Notes under the pieces: generated by a model
Told to the model about the DNA's origin: nothing
Database searches by the model: none
The model's input: the letters and a program-made list of their open reading frames with translations, nothing else
In this document: in pieces, positions 1-64,000 of the stretch
Layout: each line of letters starts with the position of its first letter
Numbering within the stretch: the stretch's first letter is position 1
Program-made: the position numbers and the translations under genes
From: Hymenobacter gelipurpurascens
GTDB lineage: Bacteria > Bacteroidota > Bacteroidia > Cytophagales > Hymenobacteraceae
Direction: 5' to 3'
DNA length: 64,000 bases
Assembly: GCF_900187375.1 (NCBI RefSeq)
Contig: NZ_FYEW01000002.1
Location: forward strand, 868,001 to 932,000

Positions 1-1126
1 CATAGCTTTCCAATGCCTTCAGTACTGCTTCGGCCGAACGGTCGCCGGCACAGTGGAAGAGCATGGGCTGTTTCCACTCCAAGCCTTCCCGCACCATCTT
101 GGCCACTTCGGCCTCGCTGAAATTTAGCCGTCCTTTCCAGCCCGGACGGTCCAGGTAGTCGGAGCGCAAGGCCGCGCCGCGCTCATAGGGCGTACCGTCT
201 AGCACCCATTTCAGGCCACTTATCCGTACGCGGGGTGCAGGCTGGCGTAACGTTGACAGTTGGCGTAGCTCGGCGGTTTCGCGGCCCTGAGGAGAGGTAG
301 CCGGAAAAGGGCGCGCGTGCACCCGAATCGGCAGGTTGGCTTGCACCAGAAGCCGGGCAAAGCGGGCCACGGGTATCGTAGAAAACACCTGTATGGAAGT
401 AACTCCGAAGCCCATTGCCTGATTGGCCAAGGCCCTAAGCTCCCGTAGCACGGCCGTATCGGGCACCTGCTCACTGAGCAGGCGCTGAGGATGCCACTGC
501 GCATACTCCTGTAGCCGCCCATTGATCTGGCGGAAGCCGGCCACACGCTCAAATATACCGCCCATAGGGTTAGGCTGCTCAGCCGCCAGCTGCAGGCGGG
601 GCATTGCCTGCGTATTCAGAATGTGCGTGTGCCCGTAGTGGGCTTGCAGCAGCACTGGGTGGTTGGGAGCCAAGGCATCCAGCGCCGCCCGGTTCACGAG
701 GGTATCCAGCACCACCTTGGCCCCTACCGAGCCAAAAATCCAGGTGCCAGCGGGGGCCTGTTGCGCTGCGGCTTTGATGGCCTGGGCAGTTTCGGCCCAG
801 GTGGGCTCCATACTTGAGAAGGCCAGCCGTATGCCCGCAGGCAGAGGGTCAAAATGCATGTGCGCGTCATTGAAGCCCGGCGTTACGAGCCGGCCCTGCA
901 GGTCGAGGCGGCGGGTGTTTGGGCCCACCCACCGGCTAACTTCCGCATCCGTACCGACGGCCACAATTCGCTCGCCCCGGATAGCTAGGGCCTGGGCGCT
1001 AGGCCTGCCAACATCGGCCGTGAAGATGTTCCCGTTCAGGAGAACCAGATCGGCGGGAGGCTGCTGCCCGTAGGCCACTGCTATCAGCCGTACAGTCAGG
1101 AAGACGAGCACCAGGAGCTTTTTCAT
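1..1126 (-). CDS. Secreted amidohydrolase family 3 (YtcJ-like), C-terminus off window
   Basis: Partial gene; 375 codons are visible from the ATG at 1126 and it runs off the left edge. A signal peptide (MKKLLVLVFLTVRLIAVAYG) suggests export. The amidohydrolase metal motif GFNDAHMH lies at about residues 83-90, the segment KWVLDGTPYERG follows at about 310, and FHCAGD is at about 357-362, in the order expected of the YtcJ/amidohydrolase_3 group. These are metal-dependent hydrolases of amide-type bonds with poorly defined substrates. The N-terminal LLNGNIFTADVGRPSAQALA is the usual beta-sandwich entry of the family. The reading frame is intact throughout. The substrate cannot be read from the sequence. 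No operon partner is visible, since the next gene to the right ends 143 bp upstream. Confidence 0.85.
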   Translation of the reverse strand, partial: MKKLLVLVFLTVRLIAVAYGQQPPADLVLLNGNIFTADVGRPSAQALAIRGERIVAVGTDAEVSRWVGPNTRRLDLQGRLVTPGFNDAHMHFDPLPAGIRLAFSSMEPTWAETAQAIKAAAQQAPAGTWIFGSVGAKVVLDTLVNRAALDALAPNHPVLLQAHYGHTHILNTQAMPRLQLAAEQPNPMGGIFERVAGFRQINGRLQEYAQWHPQRLLSEQVPDTAVLRELRALANQAMGFGVTSIQVFSTIPVARFARLLVQANLPIRVHARPFPATSPQGRETAELRQLSTLRQPAPRVRISGLKWVLDGTPYERGAALRSDYLDRPGWKGRLNFSEAEVAKMVREGLEWKQPMLFHCAGDRSAEAVLKALESY

Positions 1127-1213
1127 AGTAAGCTGACGTGGACGTGTTTATAACCATATAGATTGCTGAATATACAAATAATACACAGGCCTGCCCCCTG
1201 CTACCAAAGCAAG

Positions 1214-1242
1214 AAGGCCCCCCGGAATTTCCGAAGGGCCTT
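1214..1242 (-). terminator. Probable terminator of the DUF2382 gene pair
   Basis: Stem AAGGCCC...GGGCCTT with inner CCGG/CCGA pairing, just downstream (leftward) of the stop codon at 1270. It is followed on the minus strand by a weakly T-rich stretch. Confidence 0.5.
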
Positions 1243-4701: not shown

Positions 4702-4904
4702 GGTTGGTGGTAGCTGCACTGGCCTAGGAGTGTGAACCGCGCGCCAAGGGTGGGCTATAAATGCCGAGCATACGCCCTCAAGCAATACACCTGCAATTAG
4801 GCACTAGCACTACCAAGCAGTGATTAGGCAGGTTTTGCTTCTTTTGCAGGACTCACCTGGCCTTACCGGGTGTGCGCAACTGCCTTCCACCTCCTGCTTT
4901 CCTT

Positions 4905-5525
4905 ATGGCCTCCTCTGCTATTACTACCATCGTCTTCGATTTGGGCGGCGTGCTCATCGACTGGAATCCGCGCTATCTGTATAGAAAGCTCATGGCCGAT
5001 GAGCAGCAGATGGAGACGTTTCTGAGCACCATCACTACGCCAGACTGGAATGAGGAGCAGGACGCCGGCCGCACGCTGGCCGAGGCTACGGCCCAGCTCG
5101 TAGGCCAGTATCCGGAGCACCGCGAGCTGATTGAGCACTTCTACGGCCGCTGGCCCGAGATGCTGGGCGGTGCCATACAAGGCACCGTGGATATCCTGAC
5201 GGAGCTCCGCAACAGTGGCCGCTACCGCCTCTATGCCCTCACCAACTGGTCGGAAGAGACGTTTCCGGTGGCGCTGGAGCAGTTTGAGTTTCTGCACTGG
5301 TTTGAGGCCATTGTGGTTTCGGGCACCGAGAAGTCGCGCAAGCCTTTCCCCGGTTTTTACCACACCCTCCTCACCCGCTACCAGCTAGAGCCCGGCCAGG
5401 CCGTGTTCATTGATGACAATGAGCGCAACATTTTAGCGGCAAAAGCCATCGGTTTCCAGACCGTGCACTTCCAGTCGCCGGAGCAGCTGCGCGCGGAGCT
5501 GGAGGCCCTGCAGGTAGTGGCCTAG
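4905..5525 (+). CDS. HAD-superfamily phosphatase (YihX-like)
   Basis: 206 aa from the ATG at 4905; a GTG 33 bp upstream is less likely. HAD motif I is DLGGVLIDW near the N-terminus (Asp nucleophile; the usual second Asp of DxD is replaced by GVL as in YihX-type enzymes). Motif II is LTNWS, the motif III Lys is in KSRKPFP, and the final acidic motif is FIDDNERNI. The helical cap lies between motifs I and II. The closest class is subfamily IA, YihX/glucose-1-phosphate phosphatase or epoxide-hydrolase N-terminal type. The substrate is uncertain. Its TAG stop lies in the four-base CTAG shared with the stop of the convergent dehydrogenase gene. Confidence 0.85.
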   Translation: MASSAITTIVFDLGGVLIDWNPRYLYRKLMADEQQMETFLSTITTPDWNEEQDAGRTLAEATAQLVGQYPEHRELIEHFYGRWPEMLGGAIQGTVDILTELRNSGRYRLYALTNWSEETFPVALEQFEFLHWFEAIVVSGTEKSRKPFPGFYHTLLTRYQLEPGQAVFIDDNERNILAAKAIGFQTVHFQSPEQLRAELEALQVVA

Positions 5526-6259
5526 AGGTGGCCCAGGCGGCCGCCATCTACGCGCACTTCGGCGCCTTGCACAAATTCGGCATCAGCGGAGGCCAGGTAG
5601 GCCACCAGGGCGGCTACGTCTTCGGGGCGGCCTACGTCGGCGGGGTCAATCTTTTCGGCGCCCGATTTCACGTTGGGGTTTTCCCAAAGCATGGGCGTAT
5701 CGATGGCACCGGGCAGCACCGAGTTCACGCGCAGCCCTTTGGCCTTGCCTTCCAGCGCCGCTGAGCGCGTGAGGGAATTTACGGCAGCCTTCGCGGCGGC
5801 GTAAGGTGCTACCAGCGGGCTGGTTTCGATGGCATGAATGCTGGACACGTTTACGATGGTGCCGCCTGGCTTCATGTGCAGAAATGCCTGCTTGGTGAAA
5901 TAGAAAGCGCCTAGCAGGTCAACATTCAGAATACGCATCCAGTCCTCGCCGGTCAGCTCTTCGAGGGGCTTGAACTGCATCAGGCCCGCGTTGTTCACCA
6001 CCACATCCAGTCGGCCAAACTTCTGCAGGGCGCCTTGCACTGTGGCCTCTACCTGGGCTTCGACGCCTACATCACAGAGGCTAGGCCACACTTCGGGGGC
6101 TCCGGCGGCCGTGAGTAGAGGCACGGCTTTGTCGAGCTTTTCCTGGCTGTAATCTACCAGCACTAGGCGGGCGCCTTCGCTGGCCATGCGTTTGCAAATA
6201 GCCAGCCCAATACCGCTGGCGCCGCCCGTTACGAGGACTACTTTATCGTTAAAACGCAT
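5522..6259 (-). CDS. Short-chain dehydrogenase/reductase (classical SDR)
   Basis: 245 aa from MRFNDKVVLVTGG (ATG at 6259). Cofactor motif TGGASGIG is at residues 11-18, NNAG in the middle, catalytic Ser140 in VSSIHAIE and Tyr153/Lys157 in YAAAK. The C-terminus (VQGAEVRVDGG) is the standard SDR ending. It would oxidise or reduce a small alcohol/ketone with NAD(P). The substrate is unknown, and glucose dehydrogenase-like or 3-ketoacyl reductase-like are both possible. It lies 31 bp downstream of the GH1-like gene on the same strand, so a two-gene sugar-related operon is plausible. Its stop codon overlaps that of the convergent HAD gene. Confidence 0.88.
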   Translation of the reverse strand: MRFNDKVVLVTGGASGIGLAICKRMASEGARLVLVDYSQEKLDKAVPLLTAAGAPEVWPSLCDVGVEAQVEATVQGALQKFGRLDVVVNNAGLMQFKPLEELTGEDWMRILNVDLLGAFYFTKQAFLHMKPGGTIVNVSSIHAIETSPLVAPYAAAKAAVNSLTRSAALEGKAKGLRVNSVLPGAIDTPMLWENPNVKSGAEKIDPADVGRPEDVAALVAYLASADAEFVQGAEVRVDGGRLGHL

Positions 6260-8632: not shown

Positions 8633-8706
8633 GCTGTGCTGAGTGGCCTAGCAGGCGGAGCAGAACATGTGGCCCGGCTGGCGGGTTATTTCCTTTCTTT
8701 CATGGC

Positions 8707-8718
8707 TGGCCTAGGCCA
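8707..8718. repeat. 12-bp palindrome TGGCCTAGGCCA
   Basis: Exact palindrome 21 bp upstream of the aldo/keto reductase start. One of six exact copies in the window. Confidence 0.7.
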
Positions 8719-8739: not shown

Positions 8740-9738
8740 ATGGAGTACATTGAATTAGGCAACTCAGGCCTGCACGTTTCGCGCATTACGTTTGGCAGCT
8801 GGGCAGCCGGCGGCTGGATGTGGGGCGGCACCGAGCAGAACGATGCCGTGGGCGCCATCCACGCTTCCTACGAGCTGGGCGTCACCAGCATTGATACGGC
8901 ACCGATTTACGGGCAGGGCCTGAGCGAAGAAATTGTGGGCGAAGCCATCAAGAGCCTACCCCGCGACAAGGTGCAGATCCTGACCAAGTTTGGCATGCGC
9001 TGGGACGATACCAAAGGCGACTTCGGCTTCAAAAGCAAGAACAACCAGGGCCAGGATATTGACGTGTATAAGTACGCGGCGCCGGCCAGCATCATGCAAG
9101 AGTGCGAAGACAGCCTGCGCCGCCTCGGCACCGACTACATCGACCTTTACCAGATTCATTGGCCTGATAAAACCACGCCCATTGAGGAAACGATGGAAGC
9201 CGTGCAACGGCTGGTGGAGCAAGGCAAAGTGCGCGCCATTGGCGTCAGCAACTATTCCGTAGAGCAAATGCAGACGGCTGAGAAGGTGGTAAACCTGGCC
9301 TCCAACCAGGTCCCCTACAGCATGGTGCGCCGCGATATTGAAAAGGATGTGGTGCCGTATTGCCTGGAGCACCACAAAGCCATTCTGGCCTACAGCCCCA
9401 TGCAGCTCGGCTTGCTCACGGGCAAAATCAAGCCCGGCCAGCATTTTGATGAAAGCGACCTGCGCTCTGGCCACCCGTTGTTCAAGCCCGAAAGCGTGAC
9501 CCGCGTGAATGCCTTCCTGGACAAGATCCGGCCAATGGCGGAAACCAAAAACACCACGCTAGGCCAGCTGGTGCTGCGCTGGACGCTGGCGCAGCCCGGC
9601 ATTTCGGTGGCGCTGGTGGGGGCCCGCAACGCAGAGCAGGCCGTACAGAACGCGCATGCCATTGATGTGCAGCTTTCGCCCCAAGAGGTGGATTTCATCT
9701 CGCAGCAGCTGGATCAGTTGCAGCAGCAACCGGCCTAG
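8740..9738 (+). CDS. Aldo/keto reductase
   Basis: 332 aa. An NADPH-dependent (beta/alpha)8 oxidoreductase of the AKR superfamily. Catalytic tetrad: Asp52 and Tyr57 (IDTAPIYG), Lys83 (LTKFG) and His140 (QIHWPD). The N-terminal GNSGLHVSRITFGSW and the C-terminal VGARNAEQAVQN (cofactor loop) are standard. The order and length fit the AKR11/YghZ-like group that reduces aldehydes. It stands as a single gene between two terminators. The start ATG at 8740 follows a TATACC-rich stretch that may be its promoter. The stop TAG is part of a GGCCTAG motif. Physiological substrate unknown. Confidence 0.92.
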   Translation: MEYIELGNSGLHVSRITFGSWAAGGWMWGGTEQNDAVGAIHASYELGVTSIDTAPIYGQGLSEEIVGEAIKSLPRDKVQILTKFGMRWDDTKGDFGFKSKNNQGQDIDVYKYAAPASIMQECEDSLRRLGTDYIDLYQIHWPDKTTPIEETMEAVQRLVEQGKVRAIGVSNYSVEQMQTAEKVVNLASNQVPYSMVRRDIEKDVVPYCLEHHKAILAYSPMQLGLLTGKIKPGQHFDESDLRSGHPLFKPESVTRVNAFLDKIRPMAETKNTTLGQLVLRWTLAQPGISVALVGARNAEQAVQNAHAIDVQLSPQEVDFISQQLDQLQQQPA

Positions 9739-9887: not shown

Positions 9888-11168
9888 ATGAAACGCTATC
9901 TACTTTCCTTGTGCCTGCTGGCCGCCAGCACGGCCGCCTTCGCCCAGGCGCCTTCCCGCGCCGACTCGCTTATTACGCGGGCGCAGCAAATCAGCAAGCA
10001 GAAAAACTATCCGGAAGCTATCAAGGCCTATCAGCAGGTGGTGAAGGAGCCTACAGCCAAACCCAAGTACAAGGCATACAGCTACTATAATATAGCCTGC
10101 TACTACGGCTTGCAGCAGGATGCGCCCAATGCGCTAGCCAACCTTCAGAAAGCCCTTGACAACGGCTATGTTAATGCCAAGCATATAGCCGAGGACTCCG
10201 ACCTGGAGCTGCTGCACACCCACAAGCAATGGCCGAAGCTGCTGGCCCGCGCCCGGGAGCTGGAAGAAAAAACCCTCATCCGGCGGCCCGAGGATGCGAA
10301 GCTCGTCACGACGGATATTGACCATTTCTGGAAGGCCTATGCCCTGGCCCAGCGCGATACGGCCCACGCCAGCGCCATTTTCCGGCGCGAGTATTTCGAC
10401 AAGGCCTCCGTAGGCCTGCAGGATTATTATAGCCTGAAAATCAGAAACGATAACAGCTTCACGAAGGAGATTCTGCGGCGTCCCCAGTACTACCGCTCCA
10501 TTGAGCCTACCACGCGCGCTATTGCCACCGAAAAGCCGAAGATTGTGGCCGCGTTTCGCCGCTTCCAGGAGCTGTATCCGGCGGTGCAGTTTCAGAACAT
10601 CTACTTCGTGGTGGGGGGCTGGGTATCGGGTGGTACTGTGTCGGATGCGGGCCTGCTCATTGGGGCCGATCAGACGGCCGGCGGGCCTGGCGTAAATACC
10701 TCCGAGCTGAGCTTGCTGCAGCGCAACCGCTGCGCACCCGTATCAGAAATGCCCACTCTCATGGTACACGAGCTGGTGCACCGCAACCAGGGCCCGCAGA
10801 ATGGCACCTTGCTCAGCTATGCCCTTAATGAAGGGATGGCCGATTTCGTAGCCGAGCTAGTAACGGGCAAAGCGGGTGGCGCTAACAGCCGCTTACTGGC
10901 CTACGGCAACGCCCACGAGAAAGAGTTGTGGGAGGCCTTCAAGCAGGAAATGCTAGGCACCAACTCCGATAACTGGATTGCCAACGGCCGCCAGGAAACC
11001 CCCGAAAAGCCCTGCGACCTGGGCTACTATGTGGGCTACCGCATTGTGCAGGCCTTCTACAACCAGGCTTCCGATAAAAAGCAGGCCCTGGCCGACATCC
11101 TATCTATGCGCGACCCCAACACCTTCCTGGTCCAGAGCGGCTACGAGAGTGGCCTAGCCAGCCGCTAG
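9888..11168 (+). CDS. Exported TPR and HExxH zinc metalloprotease
   Basis: 426 aa from MKRYLLSLCLLAAS (ATG at 9888). The longer ORF from 9798 includes terminator DNA and is rejected. A signal peptide (cleavage after AAFA) is followed by a TPR-like region (about 20-130; NYPEAIKAYQQV, NALANLQKALDNG). The protease part carries HELVH (H294, E295, H298) and a second Glu about 20 residues later in NEGMADF, the gluzincin pattern. The family resembles DUF2268-type predicted Zn proteases. It probably acts in the periplasm or outside the cell. Substrate unknown. It is a single gene, followed 91 bp later by a META-domain lipoprotein gene on the same strand. Confidence 0.82.
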   Translation: MKRYLLSLCLLAASTAAFAQAPSRADSLITRAQQISKQKNYPEAIKAYQQVVKEPTAKPKYKAYSYYNIACYYGLQQDAPNALANLQKALDNGYVNAKHIAEDSDLELLHTHKQWPKLLARARELEEKTLIRRPEDAKLVTTDIDHFWKAYALAQRDTAHASAIFRREYFDKASVGLQDYYSLKIRNDNSFTKEILRRPQYYRSIEPTTRAIATEKPKIVAAFRRFQELYPAVQFQNIYFVVGGWVSGGTVSDAGLLIGADQTAGGPGVNTSELSLLQRNRCAPVSEMPTLMVHELVHRNQGPQNGTLLSYALNEGMADFVAELVTGKAGGANSRLLAYGNAHEKELWEAFKQEMLGTNSDNWIANGRQETPEKPCDLGYYVGYRIVQAFYNQASDKKQALADILSMRDPNTFLVQSGYESGLASR

Positions 11169-11259
11169 GCCAGTCGGATTGGAATTCCTATGGGTGATGC
11201 AACCGTACAGGAGCGGATGGACTCCCTATCCATATGCCCCACCTTCTACTTAACGACGT

Positions 11260-11706
11260 ATGCGCTACTTATTTACTCTAGCTTATTGCATCGCCCTCCT
11301 GACATTTGTTTCCAGCTGCAAAGACAAAACAGCTGATTCTCAGTTGCTGAATACCCACTGGAAGCTAGTGGAGATTGAAGGCTCGTCCATTTCCACTTCC
11401 AGCTATTCCGATACTTACCGCTCCTATATAGAATTCACTGGCGGTATAAATCGCACCACTGGCCTAGGCCCGTGCAACTCGTTTAGCGGCTCCTTCGCCT
11501 TAGGCGCTGAACCCGGCCTGCTCACCATCAGCCCGCAGGGGGCTACCAAAATTTCCTGCCCGGCCTTAAACATTGAAACCCAATATCTGGAAGCATTGCC
11601 CCGCACCACTAGCTACCAGATTGTGGGCAAAGAGCTGCGCCTCTTTGATGCTTCTAACACCACGAAGCCCATGCTCATTTTCGAGGATCATACTCTTACT
11701 GAGTAG
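11260..11706 (+). CDS. META domain lipoprotein (HslJ-like)
   Basis: 148 aa. Lipoprotein signal MRYLFTLAYCIALLTFVSSC, then one META domain (about 30-145): NTHWKLVEIEG, LGPCNSFSGSF and KELRLFD are its conserved blocks. META/HslJ proteins are small envelope proteins tied to heat or novobiocin stress, with no known enzyme activity. The two Cys (GPCN and ISCP) may be disulfide-bonded. A paralogue with the same layout lies at 18055-18486, although the two are not adjacent. A perfect 20-bp stem terminator follows. Confidence 0.88.
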   Translation: MRYLFTLAYCIALLTFVSSCKDKTADSQLLNTHWKLVEIEGSSISTSSYSDTYRSYIEFTGGINRTTGLGPCNSFSGSFALGAEPGLLTISPQGATKISCPALNIETQYLEALPRTTSYQIVGKELRLFDASNTTKPMLIFEDHTLTE

Positions 11707-12481: not shown

Positions 12482-12595
12482 GCTCAGAATGTTTTCGATT
12501 TCAGGCGGGTATAACCCACCTAAATGGGTAAATGTTTTGGGGCGCCGCACTATCTTCCGGCAAGTGGCCTAGGCCTGTGTTTCCTACCGTTTCTT

Positions 12596-13078: not shown

Positions 13079-13090
13079 GTGGCCTAGCGG

Positions 13091-14437: not shown

Positions 14438-15244
14438 CTACAACATTTCACGCAGAAAATTGGTGGCGAGCCGCAGCACTTCCTCGGGGTTTTGCCGGTG
14501 CGGGGTGTGCCCTAGGCCAAGTAACAACGCCACCTGGGCCGGGCCGGACACCTGCTCCACAATGGCCTGTACCTGCGCCGCGGTACCGTACTCGTCGGCT
14601 TCGCCCTGCACCGCTAGCACGGGGCACTGCACGCGTGGCAAGTAGTGCTCTACGTTCCAGGTCCGGAAAGTGGGGTGCAGCCAGGTGTCGGTCCAGGCGC
14701 GGAACAGGGGCTCCGTGCGCGGGCCGTGGTAGCGGGCCAGGCGCTGGGGCAAGTCGGTGGTAGCAAACTGGTGTTGCGCTTCCCGGATGCCCGCCAGCGT
14801 CACGTCTTCTACAAACACGTGCGCGCCTACCGTTACCACAGCAGCTACCAGCGCGGGCTCGTTGGCGGCCGTAAGCAAGGCCAGGGTGCCGCCATCAGAA
14901 TGCCCAAACAGTACGCAGTGGCCTACGCCCGCGGCGCGCAGCACCGCCGGAACGGTCAGGGCTTCTTCCTCGAGGTAGCGCACGGTGCGGGGCGCGGGGC
15001 CAAACGCGGCCGATTCGCCGTAGCCACGCCGGTCGTACACTAGGGCATGACACCCCAGGGCCTCCGCCAGCCGGGCCGGGAAATTGCGCCAGAGCCGGAT
15101 GCTGCCCAGAGAATCGTGCAGGAACACGAGCGTAGGCCTATCGTCAGCGGCTGGCGCAGGGTGGCGCAGGCGGCGTATCCGCAGGAAGTGGTCCTGAAAG
15201 GGCAGGTCTTCGTCGGATTCAATTAGCAAGGGCACAACAGACAT
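14438..15244 (-). CDS. Alpha/beta hydrolase
   Basis: 268 aa from MSVVPLLIESDED (ATG at 15244). Catalytic triad: Ser116 in GHSDGG (nucleophile elbow GxSxG), Asp217 in QGEADEYG and His246 in GLGHTPH. LHDSLG near residues 43-47 supplies the oxyanion region. No signal peptide, so cytoplasmic. The substrate is not deducible, since esterases, lactonases and C-C hydrolases share this pattern. It lies downstream of the large MG2/TonB-plug gene on the same strand but is separated from it by a terminator, so it is probably transcribed on its own. Confidence 0.88.
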   Translation of the reverse strand: MSVVPLLIESDEDLPFQDHFLRIRRLRHPAPAADDRPTLVFLHDSLGSIRLWRNFPARLAEALGCHALVYDRRGYGESAAFGPAPRTVRYLEEEALTVPAVLRAAGVGHCVLFGHSDGGTLALLTAANEPALVAAVVTVGAHVFVEDVTLAGIREAQHQFATTDLPQRLARYHGPRTEPLFRAWTDTWLHPTFRTWNVEHYLPRVQCPVLAVQGEADEYGTAAQVQAIVEQVSGPAQVALLLGLGHTPHRQNPEEVLRLATNFLREML

Positions 15245-17932: not shown

Positions 17933-17944
17933 TGGCCTAGGCCA
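17933..17944. repeat. 12-bp palindrome TGGCCTAGGCCA
   Basis: Exact copy, extended by one base each side (GTGGCCTAGGCCAC), in the divergent intergenic gap between the MG2-plug and META genes. Confidence 0.7.
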
Positions 17945-18486: not shown

Positions 18487-18559
18487 AGGATGCTTATAAA
18501 GCTTTGAAAGGGCGCTTTGATGTGCGCTTTGCCTGAGCCAACACAGTTGATATACTGGC

Positions 18560-22831: not shown

Positions 22832-22843
22832 TGGCCTAGGCCA
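22832..22843. repeat. 12-bp palindrome TGGCCTAGGCCA
   Basis: Exact copy between the msrA stop and its terminator. Confidence 0.7.
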
Positions 22844-47401: not shown

Positions 47402-47457
47402 GTGGTGAAATAGGCCGTTCGGGAAGTGGCCTAGAGGCGCTATCATTGGGAGCGGAG

Positions 47458-49043: not shown

Positions 49044-49134
49044 AGGTGAAGTGGTGAGTTTGCTGTTCTATAGGCGACGATTGCGCAAATGGCGTGGTCT
49101 AGGCCAGTCGAACAGCAAACTCACCACTTCACCT
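49044..49134. repeat. 25-bp inverted repeat related to the one at 41914
   Basis: Arms 49044-49068 (AGGTGAAGTGGTGAGTTTGC...) and 49110-49134. The right arm continues into GACTGGCCTAG (complement), matching the 41.9-kb repeat. It lies between the tRNA and the response-regulator stop. Confidence 0.85.
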
Positions 49135-49784: not shown

Positions 49785-50129
49785 ATTAGTAGAAATGCTA
49801 AAATCAGTTTTTGCTGTCGTTGCCCAGCAAGATAGCAGGGCATTCAGATAGGTACTACGAAACTACCGGCAGTTAGGTAAACCGGTGGCTGCTTCGGGCC
49901 GCTCCCTGTCGGCGGCGGGGCACATTGCCAGCCTGTTGCGCCGAAGAAACAGGCTGGCCGGTTTGGTAGTGGGTTTGGCGAGTTTGCTGACTTCTAGGCC
50001 ACCCTAAATCATATAACAACCTGGCAGCTAAAATCCGTATACAGGCCTAGACAAAAGCGCATTCTCCCTGACTTACAGGCTGATGCACTTTTTTCAGCTT
50101 TGACAATCCGCCCTTTTAGCTCCCCACCC
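49785..50129. other. Intergenic region, 345 bp
   Basis: Divergent spacer between the regulator and the STAS-like gene. A CTAGGCCA octamer (49994) and a GAGTTTGCTGACTTCTAGGCC stretch that resembles the 49044/41914 repeat are seen around 49979-50000. No terminator or ORF. Confidence 0.5.
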
Positions 50130-50495
50130 ATGGAAGTCTATCGTGAAATCCTGCCCCAAAGCTATCTGCTGATCTTAACGGACTCTGAGCCGAAAGACCT
50201 GACGCCCCTGTCCTACGCCCTGCGGCTGGCCAGCCGTAGCGGCAAATCCAACATCTGGATTGATTGCAGCCACGTAACGAAGATGCCTTTCTCGGTGCTG
50301 CGGGTGCTGGTCCGCTACTACCGCCGTCTGCTGGCGCGCAATGTATCCTTGGTGTTATGCCACGTAGGCGATGCCGCGCATCAGCAAATGGCCAAGCTGG
50401 CTACCGCAGACCGTCCGCCAGTAATGCCCTCTTTGCTGGATGCGGAGCAGTACTGCAAGTCGCCACACCGGATTCTGCACCGCACGGCCGCCTAG
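50130..50495 (+). CDS. STAS-domain-like small protein
   Basis: 121 aa from MEVYREILPQSYLLILTD (ATG at 50130); the TTG ORF starting at 50100 is longer by ten residues. The sequence alternates beta strands and amphipathic helices like an anti-sigma antagonist STAS domain (SNIWIDCSHVTKMPFSVLRV resembles the strand-helix with phosphorylation site; the Ser/Thr is at the expected place). No other domain. Function unknown, since neighbours do not include an anti-sigma factor. The stop TAG is embedded in GCCTAGGCCAG, so the motif again supplies a stop codon. Confidence 0.65.
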   Translation: MEVYREILPQSYLLILTDSEPKDLTPLSYALRLASRSGKSNIWIDCSHVTKMPFSVLRVLVRYYRRLLARNVSLVLCHVGDAAHQQMAKLATADRPPVMPSLLDAEQYCKSPHRILHRTAA

Positions 50496-50507
50496 GCCAG
50501 TAGGCTG

Positions 50508-51197
50508 CTACAGCAGCCCAGCCAACCCGCTAATGGTGAGAGCCACCACGGCCGTATTGAACCCAAACGACAGTAGCCCGTGCACCAGCACCACCCGCCG
50601 GATAAGGCGGTCCGATACGCCCACATCAGCCGTCTGGGCGGTCATGCCGATAGTAAAGGAGAAGTAGGCAAAGTCGAGGTAGTCGGGCTCCGGGTCGTTG
50701 CCCGGAAACTCTAGGCCACCTTCCCGGCGGCTGGCATCGGTATCATAGAATAAGTGGGCGTAGCGTAGCGTAAATAGCGTGTGCACCAGCAGCCAGGCCG
50801 TGAGCACGCCCAACACGCCTGTAACTACATGCGGCAACAGCAGGGCATCGTGGGCCTTTCGCATGGAAGAAAGTAGCAGAACCACCGCTACCAAACTCAC
50901 GCCGGAAAGCAACAGCACGAAGCCAAACGAAAGCACGCGGCCGGGGTCTTCGCGGGTGGCAATGCGACGGATGTGGCCTACGTTAGCGGTCAGGATAATG
51001 GCCCAGGTGATGAGCAGCGTGCTGACGGCAAACCCGTCCCAGGCCGTGAGCAACCGCATGAGCGTAGGCCAGGCATCGGGCGTCAGGAGGTACAGGCCCA
51101 GCGCCGGCAACACCCCGATAGACAGGCGCTTCCAGGTTGATAACAAGGCTAGGCGGTGAAGCCCCGCAGCATGCGGGACAGGAGCAGAAGTGGCCAT
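50508..51197 (-). CDS. DUF1345 membrane protein
   Basis: 229 aa from MATSAPVPHAAG (ATG at 51197). Five or more hydrophobic helices (SIGVLPALGLYLLTP, LLITWAIILTANVG, GFVLLLSGVSLVAVVLLLS, VVTGVLGVLTAWLLVHTLFT, LLSFGFNTAVVALTISGL). The conserved YAHLFY and DFAYFSFTIGMTAQTADVG are DUF1345 signatures. Inner-membrane protein of unknown function; DUF1345 members resemble ion-channel-like subunits but no activity is established. Divergent from the nicotinate phosphoribosyltransferase gene, with only 56 bp between the starts. An ATG at 51242 would give a longer form. Confidence 0.82.
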   Translation of the reverse strand: MATSAPVPHAAGLHRLALLSTWKRLSIGVLPALGLYLLTPDAWPTLMRLLTAWDGFAVSTLLITWAIILTANVGHIRRIATREDPGRVLSFGFVLLLSGVSLVAVVLLLSSMRKAHDALLLPHVVTGVLGVLTAWLLVHTLFTLRYAHLFYDTDASRREGGLEFPGNDPEPDYLDFAYFSFTIGMTAQTADVGVSDRLIRRVVLVHGLLSFGFNTAVVALTISGLAGLL

Positions 51198-52793: not shown

Positions 52794-53321
52794 CTACCCA
52801 AACTTCTTCCAAAGCTTGGGTAGCATCTTTGGCAACTGACTTTCAGTCCAGTCTTCGCCTTTCGTGACCGAGCCCGAATCGTAATCTAGGCCACGGGCAG
52901 CAGCCACTTCTCTGGGAAAGCTATCGTCTTCCTCTTTCTTGCCCGTTTGCTTTTTGAAGGCACATGTGGCGACGTACAATAACTCTTCAAAGTCTTGGTA
53001 CGGAGCCTCTAGCACAGCAGCAAGCGTATCGGGCTTATCAATTGCAGCTCTGAATACTTCATCCCCTTGCCCAACCAGCCAGCAGCGGAAGTACAGATAC
53101 GTGTCGTCGGAGACGTAGCCATCTATAATTTTTTGAGCAGCCATGATGCCGAAGTCATCAGCTTCTATCAACAACTCACATAGAATACACTCGAAATCGA
53201 TAATCTCCTCCGGCCCAAATATTTGTAGGCTGCTGATCAGTTTCTTCTCTTGAAGAGCTTGGTCGCCATTCGAAGCTTTTTTGGCGGAATCTATTAGCTG
53301 CCAGAACTCTTTTTTATCCAT
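52794..53321 (-). CDS. DUF4240 protein
   Basis: 175 aa from MDKKEFWQLIDSAKK (ATG at 53321). The N-terminal FWQLIDSAKK, the LYFRCWLVGQGDEVF centre and the C-terminal helix pattern match DUF4240, a family often met with nucleases, toxins and immunity-type loci but of unknown function. The gene is clearly less GC-rich than its neighbours (many AA/TT codons), which points to acquisition by transfer. It has Glu/Asp-rich acidic character (about 20 Asp/Glu in the first 100 residues). No partner toxin or nuclease is adjacent. Confidence 0.75.
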   Translation of the reverse strand: MDKKEFWQLIDSAKKASNGDQALQEKKLISSLQIFGPEEIIDFECILCELLIEADDFGIMAAQKIIDGYVSDDTYLYFRCWLVGQGDEVFRAAIDKPDTLAAVLEAPYQDFEELLYVATCAFKKQTGKKEEDDSFPREVAAARGLDYDSGSVTKGEDWTESQLPKMLPKLWKKFG

Positions 53322-56615: not shown

Positions 56616-56720
56616 GGGAAGTATCGAGAAGTGGTAGTGAGCAGTAAGGCCCGCTACCGGGGTGGTGAGTGTAACCCCAACGAAGCACAAGGCCCCGGTG
56701 AGTTGACGAGGATAAGTGGC

Positions 56721-57434
56721 CTAGCCCGCAGCTACATCTCCTCGCGAAGAAGAACCAGCAGAAACAGGCAGCAGAGGATCGGAGGTGGTTGCTAAAACGG
56801 CGGCCGCAGCTACCGTTTCGGGGTGATGTGGCAGCTCGCCTCGAATGAAGCGGGCTAGTGTGTCGGCGTATAGAAAGTGCTCCACGGCCAGGCCGCGACG
56901 CTCTACTTCTGCTAGGGTGTCAGCGCCCTGCAAGTCAACGCAATGCTGCGCCAGAACAGGGCCGGTATCCAGGCCCTCATCAACCAAGTGAACCGTTATT
57001 TTGGTTTCCGGCAACTGATTTTCAAAGGCCCACTCATAGGCGTGCAGACCCTGGTGCTGATGGGTGTCGGCAGGATGAATGTTGATAATGCGCCCCGCAA
57101 ACGCCCGAATAAACGTGGGCGACAGGATACGCATGTAGCCGGCCAGCACCACGTAGTCGGGCTGGTAGCGGTTCAGCACCTCCACAACCTCCGCATCGTA
57201 CTCGGCTCTTTTGCGGCCTTGGCTGTTGAGGCTAGCCGTGGGGCACCCTAGGCCAGCCGCCGTTTCTAGGCCAGGTGCATCGGGCTTGTTGCTGAAGACC
57301 ACGGCTATTTCGGCTAGCTCATGCAACACGCCAAACTGCACAGCGTGTACCAGGGCCACCATGTTGGAGCCCCGGCCCGACAATAAGATTGCCAGGCGCT
57401 GCTTACGGATGCTATGTTTACCAGTTTCCTGCAA
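56721..57434 (-). CDS. purN: Phosphoribosylglycinamide formyltransferase
   Basis: 237 aa from MQETGKHSIRKQRLAILLSG. GAR transformylase uses 10-formyl-THF. LLSGRGSN (about 17-24) is the N-terminal loop, the substrate loop is INIHPADTHQHQG with Asn and His in place, and TVHLVDEGLDTGP carries the catalytic Asp. The usual HPSLLP..(P)G is replaced by HPADTHQHQG, a variant worth noting. The last 35 residues are an extra Ala/Ser-rich tail. The start overlaps the end of purD by 17 bp, so the two are coupled. The stop is inside a GGCCTAG motif. Confidence 0.93.
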   Translation of the reverse strand: MQETGKHSIRKQRLAILLSGRGSNMVALVHAVQFGVLHELAEIAVVFSNKPDAPGLETAAGLGCPTASLNSQGRKRAEYDAEVVEVLNRYQPDYVVLAGYMRILSPTFIRAFAGRIINIHPADTHQHQGLHAYEWAFENQLPETKITVHLVDEGLDTGPVLAQHCVDLQGADTLAEVERRGLAVEHFLYADTLARFIRGELPHHPETVAAAAVLATTSDPLLPVSAGSSSRGDVAAG

Positions 57435-58707
57435 GGCTAGGTTCCGGCCGCTGGCCGATATCGGTACGGATGTATATATCCTTGAATTTAACTCTTTCTA
57501 CCTCCCGATACACATGATTTACAGCATCTTCCAGCTCATCACCATGGCCTACGAGTACCATTACCCGGCCGCCGCTGGTCACCAACTGCCCGTCGTCGTG
57601 GCGGCGAGTAGCGCCGTGGAAGGCCAGAATGCTAGGGTGCAACTGATCTAGGCCAGTAATTGGAAAGCCGGTGGGGAAGTTAGCGGCTGGGTAGCCTCCC
57701 GAAGCCAGAACCACGCCCACATAATACCCGCGGCGCTGCCGCACCACCGTTTGCTGTAGCCGGCCATCCAGCGTTGCTTCAATGAGCTCCAGTAAGCTGC
57801 TTTCCAGGGCGGGCAGCAATACTTCCGCCTCAGGGTCGCCGAGGCGGACGTTGTATTCCAACAGCTTCGGGCCCTGGGGCGTGAGCATGATGCCGAAGTA
57901 CAGGAAGCCCTTAAAGTCGAACTGCTCGTTTTGTAGGCCACGTAGGGTAGGATCTACGATGCTGGTGCGAATGGCGGCCAAGATATTATCGTCGCAGAAC
58001 GGCACGGGGCAATAAGCGCCCATGCCACCGGTGTTAGGGCCTTTGTCGCCGGCCAGCAGCTGCTTATGGTCCTGAGAAGGCGCCAGCAGCCGCACGCGGT
58101 TGCCATCCGTCACGCCGATGATGCTGATTTCGGGGCCGGTCAGTTTTTCTTCCAGCAGGAAGCTAAACCAGCCGGTGTGCTGCTGTTGCAAATCATCCAG
58201 CGCGGCCTGTGCTTCCTCTATGGAGGAGCACACATATACGCCTTTGCCAGCCGCCAAGCCATCAAACTTCACCACTACCTGTCCGTCCAGCTCGGTGGCT
58301 TTAGCGCGGGCTTCGTCCAGCTTGTCGCTCCGGTATTTCCACGACATGGCCGTGGCTACCCCGTGCCGGCGCATAAAGTCCTTCGACCACACCTTGGAGC
58401 TTTCCAGCATAGCCCCCGCCCTACCCGGACCAAACACCCGGATATCGGAACCAGCGAAATGGTCCACTACGCCCGCCGCTAGCGGAGCTTCCGGCCCGAC
58501 CACAATCAGCTTTACGCCGTTGGCTTCACAAAAGCCTTGAACGGCCGGAAAGTCGGTAGCGCTGATTTCGGGGTGACTGTTGGGGATGCCGGCGTTGCCG
58601 GGCAACACGTGCACGGTGGCGCCGTCGCGGGTTAGCTTCCACGCCATAGCGTGTTCACGGGCCCCGCCGCCGAGGAGTACGATCGTTTTATTCGAAGAAC
58701 TAGTCAT
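57418..58707 (-). CDS. purD: Phosphoribosylamine--glycine ligase
   Basis: 429 aa from MTSSSNKTIVLLGGGAREH. ATP-grasp enzyme joining PRA and glycine. VGPEAPLAAGVVDHF, the ATP-grasp loop KFDGLAAGKGVYV and the conserved PNTGGMGAYCPVPF are visible, with YNVRLGDPEAEVLLP supplying metal ligands. The start is eight bases inside the end of the GNAT gene upstream, and its end overlaps purN by 17 bp. So GNAT-purD-purN is one overlapping block of the operon. Confidence 0.96.
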   Translation of the reverse strand: MTSSSNKTIVLLGGGAREHAMAWKLTRDGATVHVLPGNAGIPNSHPEISATDFPAVQGFCEANGVKLIVVGPEAPLAAGVVDHFAGSDIRVFGPGRAGAMLESSKVWSKDFMRRHGVATAMSWKYRSDKLDEARAKATELDGQVVVKFDGLAAGKGVYVCSSIEEAQAALDDLQQQHTGWFSFLLEEKLTGPEISIIGVTDGNRVRLLAPSQDHKQLLAGDKGPNTGGMGAYCPVPFCDDNILAAIRTSIVDPTLRGLQNEQFDFKGFLYFGIMLTPQGPKLLEYNVRLGDPEAEVLLPALESSLLELIEATLDGRLQQTVVRQRRGYYVGVVLASGGYPAANFPTGFPITGLDQLHPSILAFHGATRRHDDGQLVTSGGRVMVLVGHGDELEDAVNHVYREVERVKFKDIYIRTDIGQRPEPSLAGNW

Positions 58708-59595: not shown

Positions 59596-59596
59596 T

Positions 59597-61622: not shown

Positions 61623-61624
61623 GA

Positions 61625-64000
61625 TTACTGAGCCGCTTCGTGCTGGCCGAAGCCGATAATTCTGTTTACTGGGCCATTCGTCCATTCGTGGCGCAGGGCT
61701 GCCGTGCTGGCCGAAATGACCGTCTGGCTGCCGTGGCGCACCGTGAGCTGACCGTCCTGCGTTACCACACCAAGGCGGTTGGCGCGGCCACCGAAGTGCT
61801 GCTCGAAGGCCACCACATCTTCGGGAGCCACCGTAGCTACGAAGCGGGAGTGAGACTCCGAGAACAGCTGCGCCGACAGGCCTAGGCCAGTAACGGGCAG
61901 CTCCACATCAGCACCAAAGCCATGACCGAACGTGGCTTCTGCCAAGGCAACCGCTAGGCCACCGTCAGATAGGTCGTGGCAAGATTGAATGAGGCCCTGG
62001 TCGTTGGCTTGGCCCATCAGGGTGTAGAGGGCTTTAGCTTCTTCAAACCGAACTTTGGGCACGTTGGCGCCTAGCTCACCGAAAAGCTGGTAGAACTCCG
62101 AGCCGCCTAGCTCGTCGTAGGTTTCGCCCAGCAGGTACACCACGTCGTCGGCTTGCTTGAAGTCGGAGGTGATGGTGCGGCGGACGTCCTCGATTTTGGC
62201 GGTCATGGAGTACAGGACCGTGGGCGGAACCGAAATCTTCACGCCATCGGCCTTGAAGTCGTTCTTCATCGAATCCTTGCCCGAGGTGAGCGGGATGCAG
62301 TAGGCCGCCGTGGCATCGCGCAGAGCCTGGCACATGCGCACCAGCTTGGCCAGCTTGTGCTTGCCATCAGGGTTAGTGGCGGGGTCGTACACCGAGTCGG
62401 GTACGCAGAAGTTGTCGTTCACCGACCAGAAGTTGCCGTCACCGTAGCTCAGGTTAGGCAGCTTACCTCCTACCGCTACAATCTGGCGCACAGCCTCGTC
62501 AAACGCGCCGGCCGACATATCATAGGCGTCTATATCTCCGAAGCGGGGCAGGATACCGTTGCTCACGGCTACTCCTTCCCAGCTCTCGAAGTTGAAGCGT
62601 ACCACGGCGGCATCCTGCGGAGCTTGCCCGGTTGCGCCCATGAGGGGCTTGATGATGGTGCGGCCCTTTACCTCGTGGTCGTACTGTCGAATTACCGATT
62701 CGCGGGAGCAGATGTTGAGGCTGCCGAGCAGGCGTCTCAGTACGTCGGTATAGTCGAGGTTAGCGGGTAATGCGGGCTCTTGGGCGGTAGGCTTGGTCCA
62801 CTCGGCTTCCAGCACTTTGCGCGGCACGCCGTTGTGCAGGAACTCCATATCAATGCGCGCCACCGACTCACCGTCGAAGCGCACGTCGAGGCTGCCATCC
62901 GAGGTGAAGTAGCCGATATCGGTCAGCTCCACTTCCATTTCCTGGCCTAGAGCCATCAGCTCGGCCATCTTCGCGGGCTCCACAGCCAGCGAGAAACGCT
63001 CCTGCGACTCCGACACGAAAATTTCCCAAGGCCGTAGGCCAGGGTACTTCAGGGGCACTTTCTCCAGCTCCACCACGGCACCGCCGCTGATGGTAGCCAG
63101 CTCGCCAATGGAGGAAGACAAGCCGCCCGCGCCGTTGTCAGTACTGCACTTGATGAGGCCACGACGAGTAGCCAAGATCAGGAAATCCATGGCCAGCTTC
63201 TGCGTGATGGGCGAGCCGATTTGCACAGCCGTAGCGGGCGAGGTTTCGTCTAGCTCGATGCTAGAGAACGTAGCGCCGTGGATACCGTCTTTGCCCACCC
63301 GGCCCCCGGCCATGATAATGCGGTCCTGGACGTCAATGTTTTTCTCCCACGAGTCGAGGCCAGCCAGTTGCATGGGCATTACGGCGCCGGTGCCGCAATA
63401 TACCAGCGGCTTACCAGCATACCGGTCATCAAATACAATAGCGCCATTCACCGTCGGAACGCCCGACTTGTTGCCGCCATCTTCAATGCCTTTGCGCACG
63501 CCTTCAAAAATGCGGCGCGGGTGCAGTTGGTTGCTCAGCAGCGTGCCCGAAAACTCGGGGTTACCGAAACACAGTACGTTGGTATTAAACAGCAGCTGCG
63601 CGCCCCCGATGCCAGTCGCCAGCGGGTCGCGATTGTTGCCCAGAATGCCGGTAATAGCACCGCCGTAGGGGTCAATGGCCGAGGGCGAGTTGTGCGTCTC
63701 CACCTTCCACACGAACAACGACTCGGGGTTGATGCGCACGGCGCCGGCGTTGTCACTGAACACCTTAATCAACCAATCATTGCCATTAGCGCGGAGCTGG
63801 CGGTCCACCTCGGAGGTAGCGTCTTTGATGTAGGTCTTGAATAAGGAGTCTACTTCGAACTCCTCGCCGGTATCGGCATCCCGGTACTTAATAACGGCGC
63901 TGAACTCCTTGTGCTTGCAGTGCTCCGACCAAGTCTGAGCAATGATTTCCAGCTCGCAGTCCGTCGGGTCCTGGGGCAGGCCGGCGGTCTGGCGTTCGTC
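61625..64000 (-). CDS. purL: Phosphoribosylformylglycinamidine synthase large subunit, N-terminus off window
   Basis: 792 codons seen; the gene continues beyond 64000 (frame open to the edge). The visible start is AQTWSEHCKHKEFSA (catalytic His/active-site loop of the FGAM synthase). Blocks follow: VETHNSPSAIDPYGGAITG, GGRVGKDGIHGATFSS, DNGAGGLSSSIGE, GSLNICSRESVIRQYDHEV, TSGKDSMKNDF and CHDLSDGGLAVALAEA. It belongs to the PurL-type subunit needing a separate PurQ, which is the next gene, two bases on. Confidence 0.95.
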   Translation of the reverse strand, partial: DERQTAGLPQDPTDCELEIIAQTWSEHCKHKEFSAVIKYRDADTGEEFEVDSLFKTYIKDATSEVDRQLRANGNDWLIKVFSDNAGAVRINPESLFVWKVETHNSPSAIDPYGGAITGILGNNRDPLATGIGGAQLLFNTNVLCFGNPEFSGTLLSNQLHPRRIFEGVRKGIEDGGNKSGVPTVNGAIVFDDRYAGKPLVYCGTGAVMPMQLAGLDSWEKNIDVQDRIIMAGGRVGKDGIHGATFSSIELDETSPATAVQIGSPITQKLAMDFLILATRRGLIKCSTDNGAGGLSSSIGELATISGGAVVELEKVPLKYPGLRPWEIFVSESQERFSLAVEPAKMAELMALGQEMEVELTDIGYFTSDGSLDVRFDGESVARIDMEFLHNGVPRKVLEAEWTKPTAQEPALPANLDYTDVLRRLLGSLNICSRESVIRQYDHEVKGRTIIKPLMGATGQAPQDAAVVRFNFESWEGVAVSNGILPRFGDIDAYDMSAGAFDEAVRQIVAVGGKLPNLSYGDGNFWSVNDNFCVPDSVYDPATNPDGKHKLAKLVRMCQALRDATAAYCIPLTSGKDSMKNDFKADGVKISVPPTVLYSMTAKIEDVRRTITSDFKQADDVVYLLGETYDELGGSEFYQLFGELGANVPKVRFEEAKALYTLMGQANDQGLIQSCHDLSDGGLAVALAEATFGHGFGADVELPVTGLGLSAQLFSESHSRFVATVAPEDVVAFEQHFGGRANRLGVVTQDGQLTVRHGSQTVISASTAALRHEWTNGPVNRIIGFGQHEAAQ

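What the first reader, a model, noticed from the sequence alone, without database searches (positions are those of the whole stretch)
1..64000. Strong over-representation of the octamer TGGCCTAG/CTAGGCCA, with six 12-bp palindromes TGGCCTAGGCCA
By eye I find about 50 copies of TGGCCTAG or its complement (e.g. 4722, 8643, 13079, 18556, 32265, 40459, 47420, 56716). At about 60% GC roughly 2-3 would be expected on both strands. The full palindrome occurs at 8707, 17933, 20475, 22832, 22935 and 40646, against about 0.01 expected. Since CTAG is usually avoided in bacterial genomes, the enrichment is unusual. It is densest in short gaps and at gene ends but also occurs in coding sequence. Candidate explanations (all inference): a binding site for a nucleoid-associated or segregation protein, a methyltransferase recognition site, or spread of a small repeat like cyanobacterial HIP1.
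Basis: partly seen in the sequence, partly recalled or inferred. Interest (0 to 1): 0.75.

Follow-up and report, generated by a model that had tools for sequence, protein, structure and literature searches.

The report
Lineage-specific iterated DNA words in Hymenobacter
This Hymenobacter chromosome carries one short DNA word thousands of times, a stretch with a prophage and parts of its accessory DNA hardly carry it, and other Hymenobacter branches carry different related words, as if each lineage watermarks its own DNA by a process that is not yet known.

Summary
The window holds TGGCCTAG/CTAGGCCA 57 times on both strands (51 sites, about 4 expected), including the six palindromes. It is genome-wide: 4306 copies in 5.06 Mb against 91 for the reversed word. 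The true unit is wider and not palindromic: A-S-W-GGCC-T-A-S; the 12-bp palindromes are two overlapping units. Of 204 Hymenobacteraceae genomes, 4 are rich in it, all in one part of the genus. Other Hymenobacter branches carry other words (ACCTAGGT/ACCTAGCT, CCCTAGGG, provisionally GGCTAGCC and CCCTACCC), sharing a CTAS core. Sites arise mostly by base substitution. Recognition is sharp: near-misses are little raised. The unit is even over the chromosome but absent from a stretch with a prophage and from two of three samples of accessory contig C4.

It works like the iterated words known as HIP1 and DUS, but fits neither. No resident methyltransferase of the four families searched was found in G000 or G111, and no type IV pilus ATPase match in the 10 rich genomes. 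My best guess, about 35%, is a self-DNA uptake or recombination signal using the unusual transformation route of Bacteroidota. That function is inferred, not shown. I found no earlier report in the open-access listings I saw.

The parts
8707..8718 (.). palindrome TGGCCTAGGCCA (two overlapping units sharing TA)
17933..17944 (.). palindrome TGGCCTAGGCCA
20475..20486 (.). palindrome TGGCCTAGGCCA
22832..22843 (.). palindrome TGGCCTAGGCCA
22935..22946 (.). palindrome TGGCCTAGGCCA
40646..40657 (.). palindrome TGGCCTAGGCCA
4720..4727 (+). TGGCCTAG
5518..5525 (+). TGGCCTAG (its TAG is the stop of the gene called at 4872-5525)
8644..8651 (+). TGGCCTAG
11150..11157 (+). TGGCCTAG, inverted pair with 11165
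11460..11467 (+). TGGCCTAG
12565..12572 (+). TGGCCTAG
13080..13087 (+). TGGCCTAG just after a called gene end (13078)
17762..17769 (+). TGGCCTAG
18556..18563 (+). TGGCCTAG over the stop of the - strand gene called at 18560-21544
29370..29377 (+). TGGCCTAG
32266..32273 (+). TGGCCTAG
32431..32438 (+). TGGCCTAG
35422..35429 (+). TGGCCTAG
35838..35845 (+). TGGCCTAG
40460..40467 (+). TGGCCTAG
41935..41942 (+). TGGCCTAG, inverted pair with 41961
42929..42936 (+). TGGCCTAG
44174..44181 (+). TGGCCTAG
47427..47434 (+). TGGCCTAG
47717..47724 (+). TGGCCTAG
56717..56724 (+). TGGCCTAG
62943..62950 (+). TGGCCTAG inside the AIR-synthase-domain gene 61625-63808 (taken as purL)
6081..6088 (-). TGGCCTAG
9559..9566 (-). 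TGGCCTAG
11165..11172 (-). TGGCCTAG
14512..14519 (-). TGGCCTAG
19051..19058 (-). TGGCCTAG
21728..21735 (-). TGGCCTAG
26499..26506 (-). TGGCCTAG
27095..27102 (-). TGGCCTAG
28385..28392 (-). TGGCCTAG
29479..29486 (-). TGGCCTAG
32861..32868 (-). TGGCCTAG
40567..40574 (-). TGGCCTAG
41961..41968 (-). TGGCCTAG
49099..49106 (-). TGGCCTAG
49994..50001 (-). TGGCCTAG
50492..50499 (-). TGGCCTAG
50711..50718 (-). TGGCCTAG
52886..52893 (-). TGGCCTAG
57248..57255 (-). TGGCCTAG (in the 12-genome alignment present in G000 alone)
57266..57273 (-). TGGCCTAG
57648..57655 (-). TGGCCTAG
61882..61889 (-). TGGCCTAG inside the gene taken as purL
61954..61961 (-). TGGCCTAG inside the gene taken as purL
1..64000 (.). 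all units of the wider word WGGCCTAS: 129 in the window, mean gap 485 bp

Best explanation
SHOWN: the word ASWGGCCTAS is iterated about 1.1 times per kb over the chromosome of this Hymenobacter, on both strands, wherever the genes permit. It was built mostly by base substitutions, is shared with a few related species, and is missing from a prophage stretch and from parts of the accessory DNA. Other Hymenobacter branches carry other words of the same style. INFERRED: so sharp, widespread and branch-specific a word is better explained by a sequence-specific drive than by selection at each of thousands of sites. The drive I think most likely is biased acquisition of DNA. Cells take up or recombine DNA carrying the word better than DNA lacking it, so alleles with the word keep replacing alleles without it; a change in the receptor would start a new dialect. 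Since the word-rich genomes show no type IV pilus ATPase, uptake would use the transformation route described in another bacteroidote (Riemerella), which I read as pilus-independent, ending at ComEC. The receptor that would read the word is unknown.
For: Word: 4306 vs 91 control. Unit ASWGGCCTAS. TGGCCTAS at 156 per 100 kb in G000 against 24 in six close low relatives and 6 in twelve others; one-off words, the T-to-A form apart, lie at 0.5-30 per 100 kb. 0.70-1.35 ASWGGCCTAS per kb in 19 of 20 stretches of contigs C1-C3 and 0 in the 20th, which carries terminase subunits and an S24 repressor; 0, 0 and 11 in three 20-kb stretches of C4. Substitution: 198 of 218 site-by-relative pairs ungapped. 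Dialects: in a ComEC tree of 20 genomes the four A-rich group at 100/99 and the three B-rich at 100/100. RCCTAGGY is 764-4295 in 10 of 120 genomes and 22-437 in the other 110. Dialects in the thousands of copies that follow phylogeny and share a core are what Frye et al. 2013 report for the DUS (PMC3630211, abstract and the DUS-dialects section read); finding mobile elements by atypical DUS distribution is in PMC7371117 (abstract). ComEC in 20 of 20 genomes tried. Transformation machinery called unique in R. anatipestifer (PMC8459023, abstract and passages); own-DNA preference in R. columbina (PMC7965970, two sections and passages).
Against: No uptake was measured; the three open-access papers holding both 'Hymenobacter' and 'natural transformation' name each once or twice (listing only). 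ComEC is present in word-rich and word-poor genomes alike, so it does not explain the difference. DUF5689, the family in the Riemerella surface protein, has no match in G000, and G111, G119 and G054 are not among the 44 matching genomes. In the PurL tree word-poor species (H. latericoloratus 0.18, guriensis 0.32, psychrotolerans 0.32, BT18 0.36 per kb) lie among the word-rich ones, so losses or several gains must be assumed. Known uptake words are not palindromic (recalled), whereas dialects B, C and E are. S and W positions are unusual for an uptake word (recalled). The R. columbina authors' k-mer table shows only A-rich words. Some one-off words are raised several-fold over far relatives from small bases (e.g. 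6.8 vs 1.1 and 4.7 vs 0.4 per 100 kb). A drive by repair or by an unsearched modification enzyme would leave the same traces.
Confidence: 0.35

Rival explanations
1. HIP1-like: a resident DNA methyltransferase (or another modification system such as phosphorothioation or a BREX/IIG enzyme) recognises the word, and modification-linked repair ratchets nearby sequence toward it.
For: Density, spread by substitution, palindromic dialects and lineage switching resemble HIP1 and the exceptional HIPs (PMC4390886; passages, part of the abstract among them). Degenerate S/W positions occur in modification sites (recalled). Of the 10 rich genomes, 3 have a C5 methyltransferase match, 9 an N6_Mtase match and 3 an N6_N4 match.
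Against: G111, a single 4.88-Mb contig with 2587 copies of the octamer, has no PF00145, PF01555, PF02384 or PF02086 match. In G000 the only matches lie among prophage genes and on a 4.5-kb contig, both without ASWGGCCTAS. PF01555 is in 3 of 10 rich genomes against 69 of 110 others. Families not searched (e.g. Eco57I PF07669, Dnd/Ssp, BREX) remain open.
Confidence: 0.17
2. A DNA-binding protein (nucleoid-associated, recombination or repair protein) needs the word, and weak selection at each site keeps it; branches differ because the protein changed specificity.
For: Sharp recognition, enrichment between genes and partly palindromic dialects that would suit a homodimer.
Against: Selection would have to act on thousands of sites, more than half of them in genes (122 of 226 octamers in 264 kb), and would have to switch in step with the protein in several branches. 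Some gains changed amino acids, e.g. LRY, kept by 10 of 11 relatives, reads LAY in G000, though close to the end of that protein. No strand or map bias.
Confidence: 0.22
3. Chi-like recombination hotspot word read by AddAB/RecBCD-type enzymes, over-represented so that broken self-DNA is repaired rather than degraded.
For: Absent from a prophage stretch and from two of three samples of accessory contig C4, abundant in the chromosome.
Against: Chi words are strand-biased (recalled). Here strands are equal: 2169 vs 2137 genome-wide and balanced in most 20-kb samples, the most uneven on C1-C3 being 11 vs 27. Palindromic dialects and S/W degeneracy do not suit reading of a single strand (inference).
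Confidence: 0.08
4. An undescribed mutational or gene-conversion bias of the replication or repair machinery creates the words without any use for the cell.
For: Sites appear in genes and gaps; dialects change between branches; sites shared with relatives of low count look like decay of an older stock.
Against: Differences between site and non-site include transitions and transversions, and double changes toward one exact word, which no simple mutational spectrum gives; near-misses pile up little.
Confidence: 0.15

Closest known systems
HIP1 and other highly iterated palindromes of cyanobacteria (Elhai 2015, PMC4390886; passages seen)
   Same: Short word near once per kb, genome-wide, with lineage-specific variants, spread by substitution.
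   Different: Type A word is non-palindromic; no resident methyltransferase of the four searched families in G000 or G111; different phylum; the exceptional cyanobacterial HIPs contain sites of known methyltransferases.
DNA uptake sequences (DUS) of Neisseriaceae and their dialects (Frye et al. 2013, PMC3630211; abstract and one section read)
   Same: 10-bp word in thousands of copies; dialects that follow phylogeny and share a core; mobile DNA stands out by its distribution (PMC7371117, abstract).
   Different: No type IV pilus ATPase match in any of the 10 word-rich genomes; palindromic dialects; uptake not tested here.
Uptake signal sequences (USS) of Pasteurellaceae (recalled)
   Same: About one copy per kb, in and between genes (recalled).
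   Different: USS uptake uses type IV pili (passage in PMC7965970); unrelated sequence.
Own-DNA preference in Riemerella columbina transformation (PMC7965970; two sections and passages)
   Same: Same phylum; R. anatipestifer, its relative, has a transformation machinery its authors call unique (PMC8459023).
   Different: The authors' k-mer table shows only A-rich words, nothing like this one; different class of Bacteroidota.

Membership tests
HIP1-type highly iterated palindrome | palindromic word | tested here: not met
   Type A unit ASWGGCCTAS is not palindromic; dialects B, C and E are.
HIP1-type highly iterated palindrome | about one copy per kb genome-wide | tested here: met
   0.85/kb for the octamer, 0.70-1.35/kb for ASWGGCCTAS in 19 of 20 stretches of C1-C3.
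HIP1-type highly iterated palindrome | resident orphan methyltransferase whose site lies inside the word | tested here: not met
   No C5, N6_N4, N6 or D12 family match in G111; in G000 only prophage and small-contig matches. Not met for these two genomes and four families; other families not searched, other rich genomes do have matches.
HIP1-type highly iterated palindrome | propagates by nucleotide substitution | tested here: met
   198 of 218 pairs ungapped; 41 of 198 one mismatch away, 71 of 198 two; 20 of 25 sites in genes.
DUS/USS uptake sequence | thousands of copies, both strands, ~10 bp | tested here: met
DUS/USS uptake sequence | dialects that follow phylogeny and share a core | tested here: inconclusive
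   A- and B-rich genomes group at 100/99 and 100/100 in a ComEC tree of 20 genomes, and A-E share CTAS; but in the PurL tree word-poor species lie among the A-rich ones, and word F (GGGGCCC) lacks the core.
DUS/USS uptake sequence | depleted in mobile or foreign DNA | tested here: met
   0 ASWGGCCTAS in the 20-kb prophage stretch (4 TGGCCTAG remain); 0, 0 and 11 in three stretches of C4.
DUS/USS uptake sequence | type IV pilus machinery with a DNA receptor such as ComP | tested here: not met
   PF00437 over its cut-off in 3 of 120 genomes, none of them word-rich; in each genome shown 14 of 25-44 first-look candidates were scored. ComP itself not searched.
DUS/USS uptake sequence | word raises DNA uptake | not testable with these tools
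   needs a transformation or uptake assay
Chi or KOPS | strand bias along the replichore | tested here: not met
   2169 vs 2137; per-stretch counts mostly balanced; origin and terminus were not mapped
small mobile repeat (REP/MITE-like) | inserted as a unit | tested here: not met
   empty sites ungapped in 198 of 218 pairs; few sites between genes were in the alignment (4 of 25)

The most novel reading that the evidence does not exclude
Hymenobacter has a pilus-independent, sequence-gated DNA uptake (or self-DNA recombination) system with branch-specific passwords built on a CTAS core: a DUS-like barrier evolved independently in Bacteroidota, with palindromic dialects.
Probability: 0.3. Interest if true: 0.9.

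Novelty: new variant of a known kind. Interest (0 to 1): 0.75.

Why it matters
How a bacterium comes to carry thousands of copies of one exact word has two standing answers: biased DNA uptake through type IV pili, and the methylation-directed repair postulated for HIP1. This genus shows the pattern without a pilus ATPase match in the rich genomes and, in two genomes, without a resident methyltransferase of the four families searched. Several dialects within one genus of cultured environmental bacteria make the question directly testable. The word may also serve as a marker of foreign DNA in these genomes.

Tried and rejected
Literature: (the words themselves) found 457 papers; the 20 listed looked like primer or unrelated matches. 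Searches (20 of 24 listed; 7 of 7; 12 of 122; 12 of 1,202; 8 of 59; 8 of 625; 4 of 4; 8 of 36; 3 of 3) showed no title or abstract opening that reports such a word in Hymenobacter; only the open-access library was searched, and most papers were seen as listing only.

Type IV pilus as carrier of a classical DUS: rejected for the rich genomes. DUF5689 (PF18942) as determinant: 17 genomes have a strong hit (E about 6e-17 or better), 6 of the 10 word-rich and 11 of the 110 others, but not G000, G111, G119 or G054. The five strong loci that I annotated, of 17, are SusD-DUF5689 pairs, so this is not the cause of the type A word; the excess was not corrected for phylogeny. ComEC as determinant: present in 20 of 20, so uninformative. 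Resident methyltransferases of four families.

Considered from memory and dropped: the old gyrase cleavage consensus, because dialects B and C do not fit it; Vsr repair, because G000 lacks a C5 methyltransferase match (Vsr itself not searched).

Rows left out before counts: one search skipped 2 loci under 10 kb. One search used Hymenobacter loci only and dropped L107 (open reading under 600 aa); its density table prints 40 of 75 rows. One search used for G000 only stretches of C1-C3 without the prophage stretch. One search used 11 of the 80 fetched loci. One search includes one 20-kb stretch of C4. One search stopped with an error after printing the positions; one search stopped with an error at C9 (all N) after printing the others, and its G105 lines were run. 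One search failed because regions were 1 base too long; not repeated, the 3.6-kb loci were read instead.

Full report
OBSERVATION. The window (64,000 bases, 58.9% GC) holds TGGCCTAG 28 times on + and 29 times on -; six of these are the palindrome TGGCCTAGGCCA counted on both strands, so there are 51 sites. Markov models of order 0 to 2 expect 2.5 to 4.4. The palindromes are at the stated coordinates. In the whole genome the octamer occurs 2169+2137 times, and the same letters read backwards 40+51 times.

THE UNIT. Around the core GGCCTA, 683 cases in 264 kb of G000 show A at -3 (47%), G or C at -2 (77%), T or A at -1 (59% and 28%), and G or C after TA (50% and 37%). AGTGGCCTAG, ACTGGCCTAG, AGTGGCCTAC and ACTGGCCTAC number 77, 58, 35 and 39, while AATGGCCTAG and ATTGGCCTAG number 0 and 1. 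The unit is therefore ASWGGCCTAS, which is not palindromic; the 12-bp palindromes are two units sharing the TA. Recognition is sharp: in 424 kb of G000 TGGCCTAS stands at 156 per 100 kb, against 24 in six close relatives with low counts and 6 in twelve further ones. AGGCCTAS (62 per 100 kb) is also raised. The other one-off words lie between 0.5 and 30 per 100 kb, mostly within about two-fold of the close low relatives; a few are raised several-fold over the far ones from very small bases, and some (changes at the T of TA) are lower than in the low relatives.

PLACEMENT. With a simple gene caller of mine (201 genes, 81% coding), TGGCCTAG stands at 0.57/kb in genes (122) and 2.0/kb between them (104). 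Of the 122 in genes, 96 are in two of the six frames and 10 overlap a stop codon; 33 of 85 TAG stops lie in GGCCTAG (10) or TAGGCC (23). Over the map, 19 of 20 stretches of contigs C1-C3 (20 kb each, one being the 64-kb window) have 0.70-1.35 ASWGGCCTAS per kb, with no consistent strand bias. The exception, C1:767-787k, has 0, with 4 TGGCCTAG left. It carries both terminase subunits, an S24-type repressor, a beta clamp and a methyltransferase-helicase protein, i.e. a prophage. Contig C4 (285 kb) has 0, 0 and 11 in three 20-kb stretches; the nine proteins annotated from the first two include glycosyltransferases, a TonB-dependent receptor with SusD, a conflict-system helicase and a reverse transcriptase. 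In G105 (dialect B) two stretches of contig C2 have 0 and 0.10 of that dialect's word per kb, contigs C3 and C4 0.15 and 0.30, and four stretches of the main contig 0.95-1.35.

ORIGIN OF SITES. In an alignment of the PurL region (about 10 kb) with 11 relatives, 25 sites occur in at least one genome, 12 of them in G000; 20 are in genes, 4 are not, 1 is gapped in G000. Where a genome lacks the site, the place is aligned without gaps in 198 of 218 pairs, at 1 mismatch in 41, 2 in 71 and 3 in 50 of the 198. A typical non-site state is CGGCCTGC for TGGCCTAC. For codons overlapping sites that differ between G000 and a relative, 56 pairs are synonymous and 42 are not (pairs share history and are not independent). 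LRY, kept by 10 of 11 relatives, reads LAY in G000 through a double base change, near the end of that protein. Several sites are shared with relatives of low count (H. guriensis, H. psychrotolerans, BT18), as if the word was older and is decaying in them (inference).

WHO ELSE. The genus is Hymenobacter. Among 120 Hymenobacter genomes TGGCCTAG is 2587-4554 in four (G000, G024, G111, G119) and 16-544 in the rest. Among 204 genomes of the family, none of the 84 from the five other genera is rich (at most 225). Named species with raised TGGCCTAS in 22 kb are H. wooponensis (1.22/kb), H. fodinae (1.04), H. mucosus (0.59) and H. sediminis (0.54). Other Hymenobacter genomes are rich in other words. 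Dialect C is CCCTAGGG/ACCTAGG (G054, G070, G086, H. polaris, H. setariae, BT559). Also seen, in samples of 20-22 kb per genome and hence provisional, are GGCTAGCC (CA2-7), CCCTACCC (H. citatus, G002, G026) and GGGGCCC (H. nivis, 3.4/kb). RCCTAGGY counts separate 10 genomes (764-4295) from 110 (22-437). In a ComEC tree of 20 genomes the four A-rich group at 100/99 and the three B-rich at 100/100; the three C-rich lie in a group with G027, itself CTAG-rich in its 20-kb sample with a different spelling. In the PurL tree of 75 rows, with many open forks, the word-poor H. latericoloratus, H. guriensis, H. psychrotolerans and BT18 lie among the A-rich species, so the A word has been lost in some or gained more than once. 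All of these words but GGGGCCC contain CTA followed by G or C.

WHAT COULD DRIVE IT. For HIP1, Elhai (PMC4390886; passages) ties iterated words to methyltransferases. G000 has no PF00145 and no PF02086 match. Its PF01555 match is among the prophage genes and its PF02384 match is a 22-bit hit on a 4.5-kb contig with no ASWGGCCTAS. G111 has no match to any of the four families (for PF01555 by its absence from the 72 genomes listed with a match). Other rich genomes do have matches: PF02384 in 9 of 10, PF00145 in 3 of 10, PF01555 in 3 of 10. For the DUS, Frye et al. (PMC3630211; abstract and the DUS-dialects section) describe thousands of copies, eight dialects with a conserved CTG core that follow phylogeny, and barriers between dialects; in K. 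oralis, allowing one mismatch adds 21%. Finding mobile elements by atypical DUS distribution is described in PMC7371117 (abstract). Hymenobacter shows much of this, but the pilus ATPase family PF00437 is over its cut-off in 3 of 120 genomes and matches none of the rich ones; only 14 of the 25-44 first-look candidates were scored in each genome shown. Bacteroidota can transform without the known uptake machines: R. anatipestifer needs ComEC, DprA, ComF, RecA and four proteins without homology to known transformation proteins (PMC8459023, abstract and passages). R. columbina prefers its own DNA in competition, though its authors' k-mer table shows only A-rich words (PMC7965970, sections). ComEC is present in 20 of 20 Hymenobacter genomes tried, rich or poor. 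The DUF5689 test was negative for G000.

VERDICT. A real, strong, genome-wide and lineage-specific iterated word with sister dialects. It works like HIP/DUS words but is a proven member of neither, since a defining feature of each was tested and not met. The uptake/recombination reading is my best guess at 0.35; the modification, binding-protein and mutational-bias rivals stay open. I saw no earlier report (listings and abstract openings, except the papers named above).

Noticed in passing
and control columns, 120 Hymenobacter genomes: The GATC-containing control words are nearly absent (0-5 copies) in many Hymenobacter genomes and common (tens to over 100) in others, suggesting GATC avoidance in a subset of the genus.
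   Followed up: no
L079, L080, L082 (H. coccineus, H. caeli, H. nivis): Words such as GGGGCCC and AGGGCCCC are strongly over-represented (GGGGCCC 3.4 per kb in H. nivis); another iterated word, without the CTAS core.
   Followed up: partly
L067 (H. citatus), G002 (L031), G026 (L136): CCCTACCC is over-represented (CCCTACC 1.2 per kb in H. citatus).
   Followed up: partly
L073, L075, L096 (BT188, H. roseosalivarius, H. qilianensis): C-rich words such as TGCCCCCC and CCCCCCAG recur in these related genomes, 9-14 times in 22 kb.
   Followed up: no
G054 stretches L025, L026, L131, L132; G111 stretches L013, L014: Longer interspersed repeats with GAAGCATCTCT (both genomes) and GTCATGCTGAG (G054), unrelated to the iterated word.
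   Followed up: no
L110 (Saprospira grandis): TGGACCAA/TTGGTCCA occurs 15 times in 22 kb, a possible iterated word in another bacteroidote.
   Followed up: no
G000:C1:767001-787000 (L202): Prophage genes: terminase subunits, an S24 repressor, a DNA polymerase beta clamp and a methyltransferase-SNF2 protein.
   Followed up: partly
L157-L173 (five of them annotated: L157, L160, L163, L168, L171): SusD next to a DUF5689 protein in the five loci looked at; strong DUF5689 hits are in 6 of 10 word-rich and 11 of 110 other genomes, which may be phylogeny or chance.
   Followed up: partly
G036:C6, G099:C112, G112:C16: Only these 3 of 120 Hymenobacter genomes have a T2SS/T4P-type ATPase over the cut-off.
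   Followed up: no
L041 (H. mucosus), L028 (G027): CTAG is 4.0-4.3 per kb (0.9 in 12 low loci) without one dominant flank, as if CTAG avoidance itself is relaxed.
   Followed up: partly
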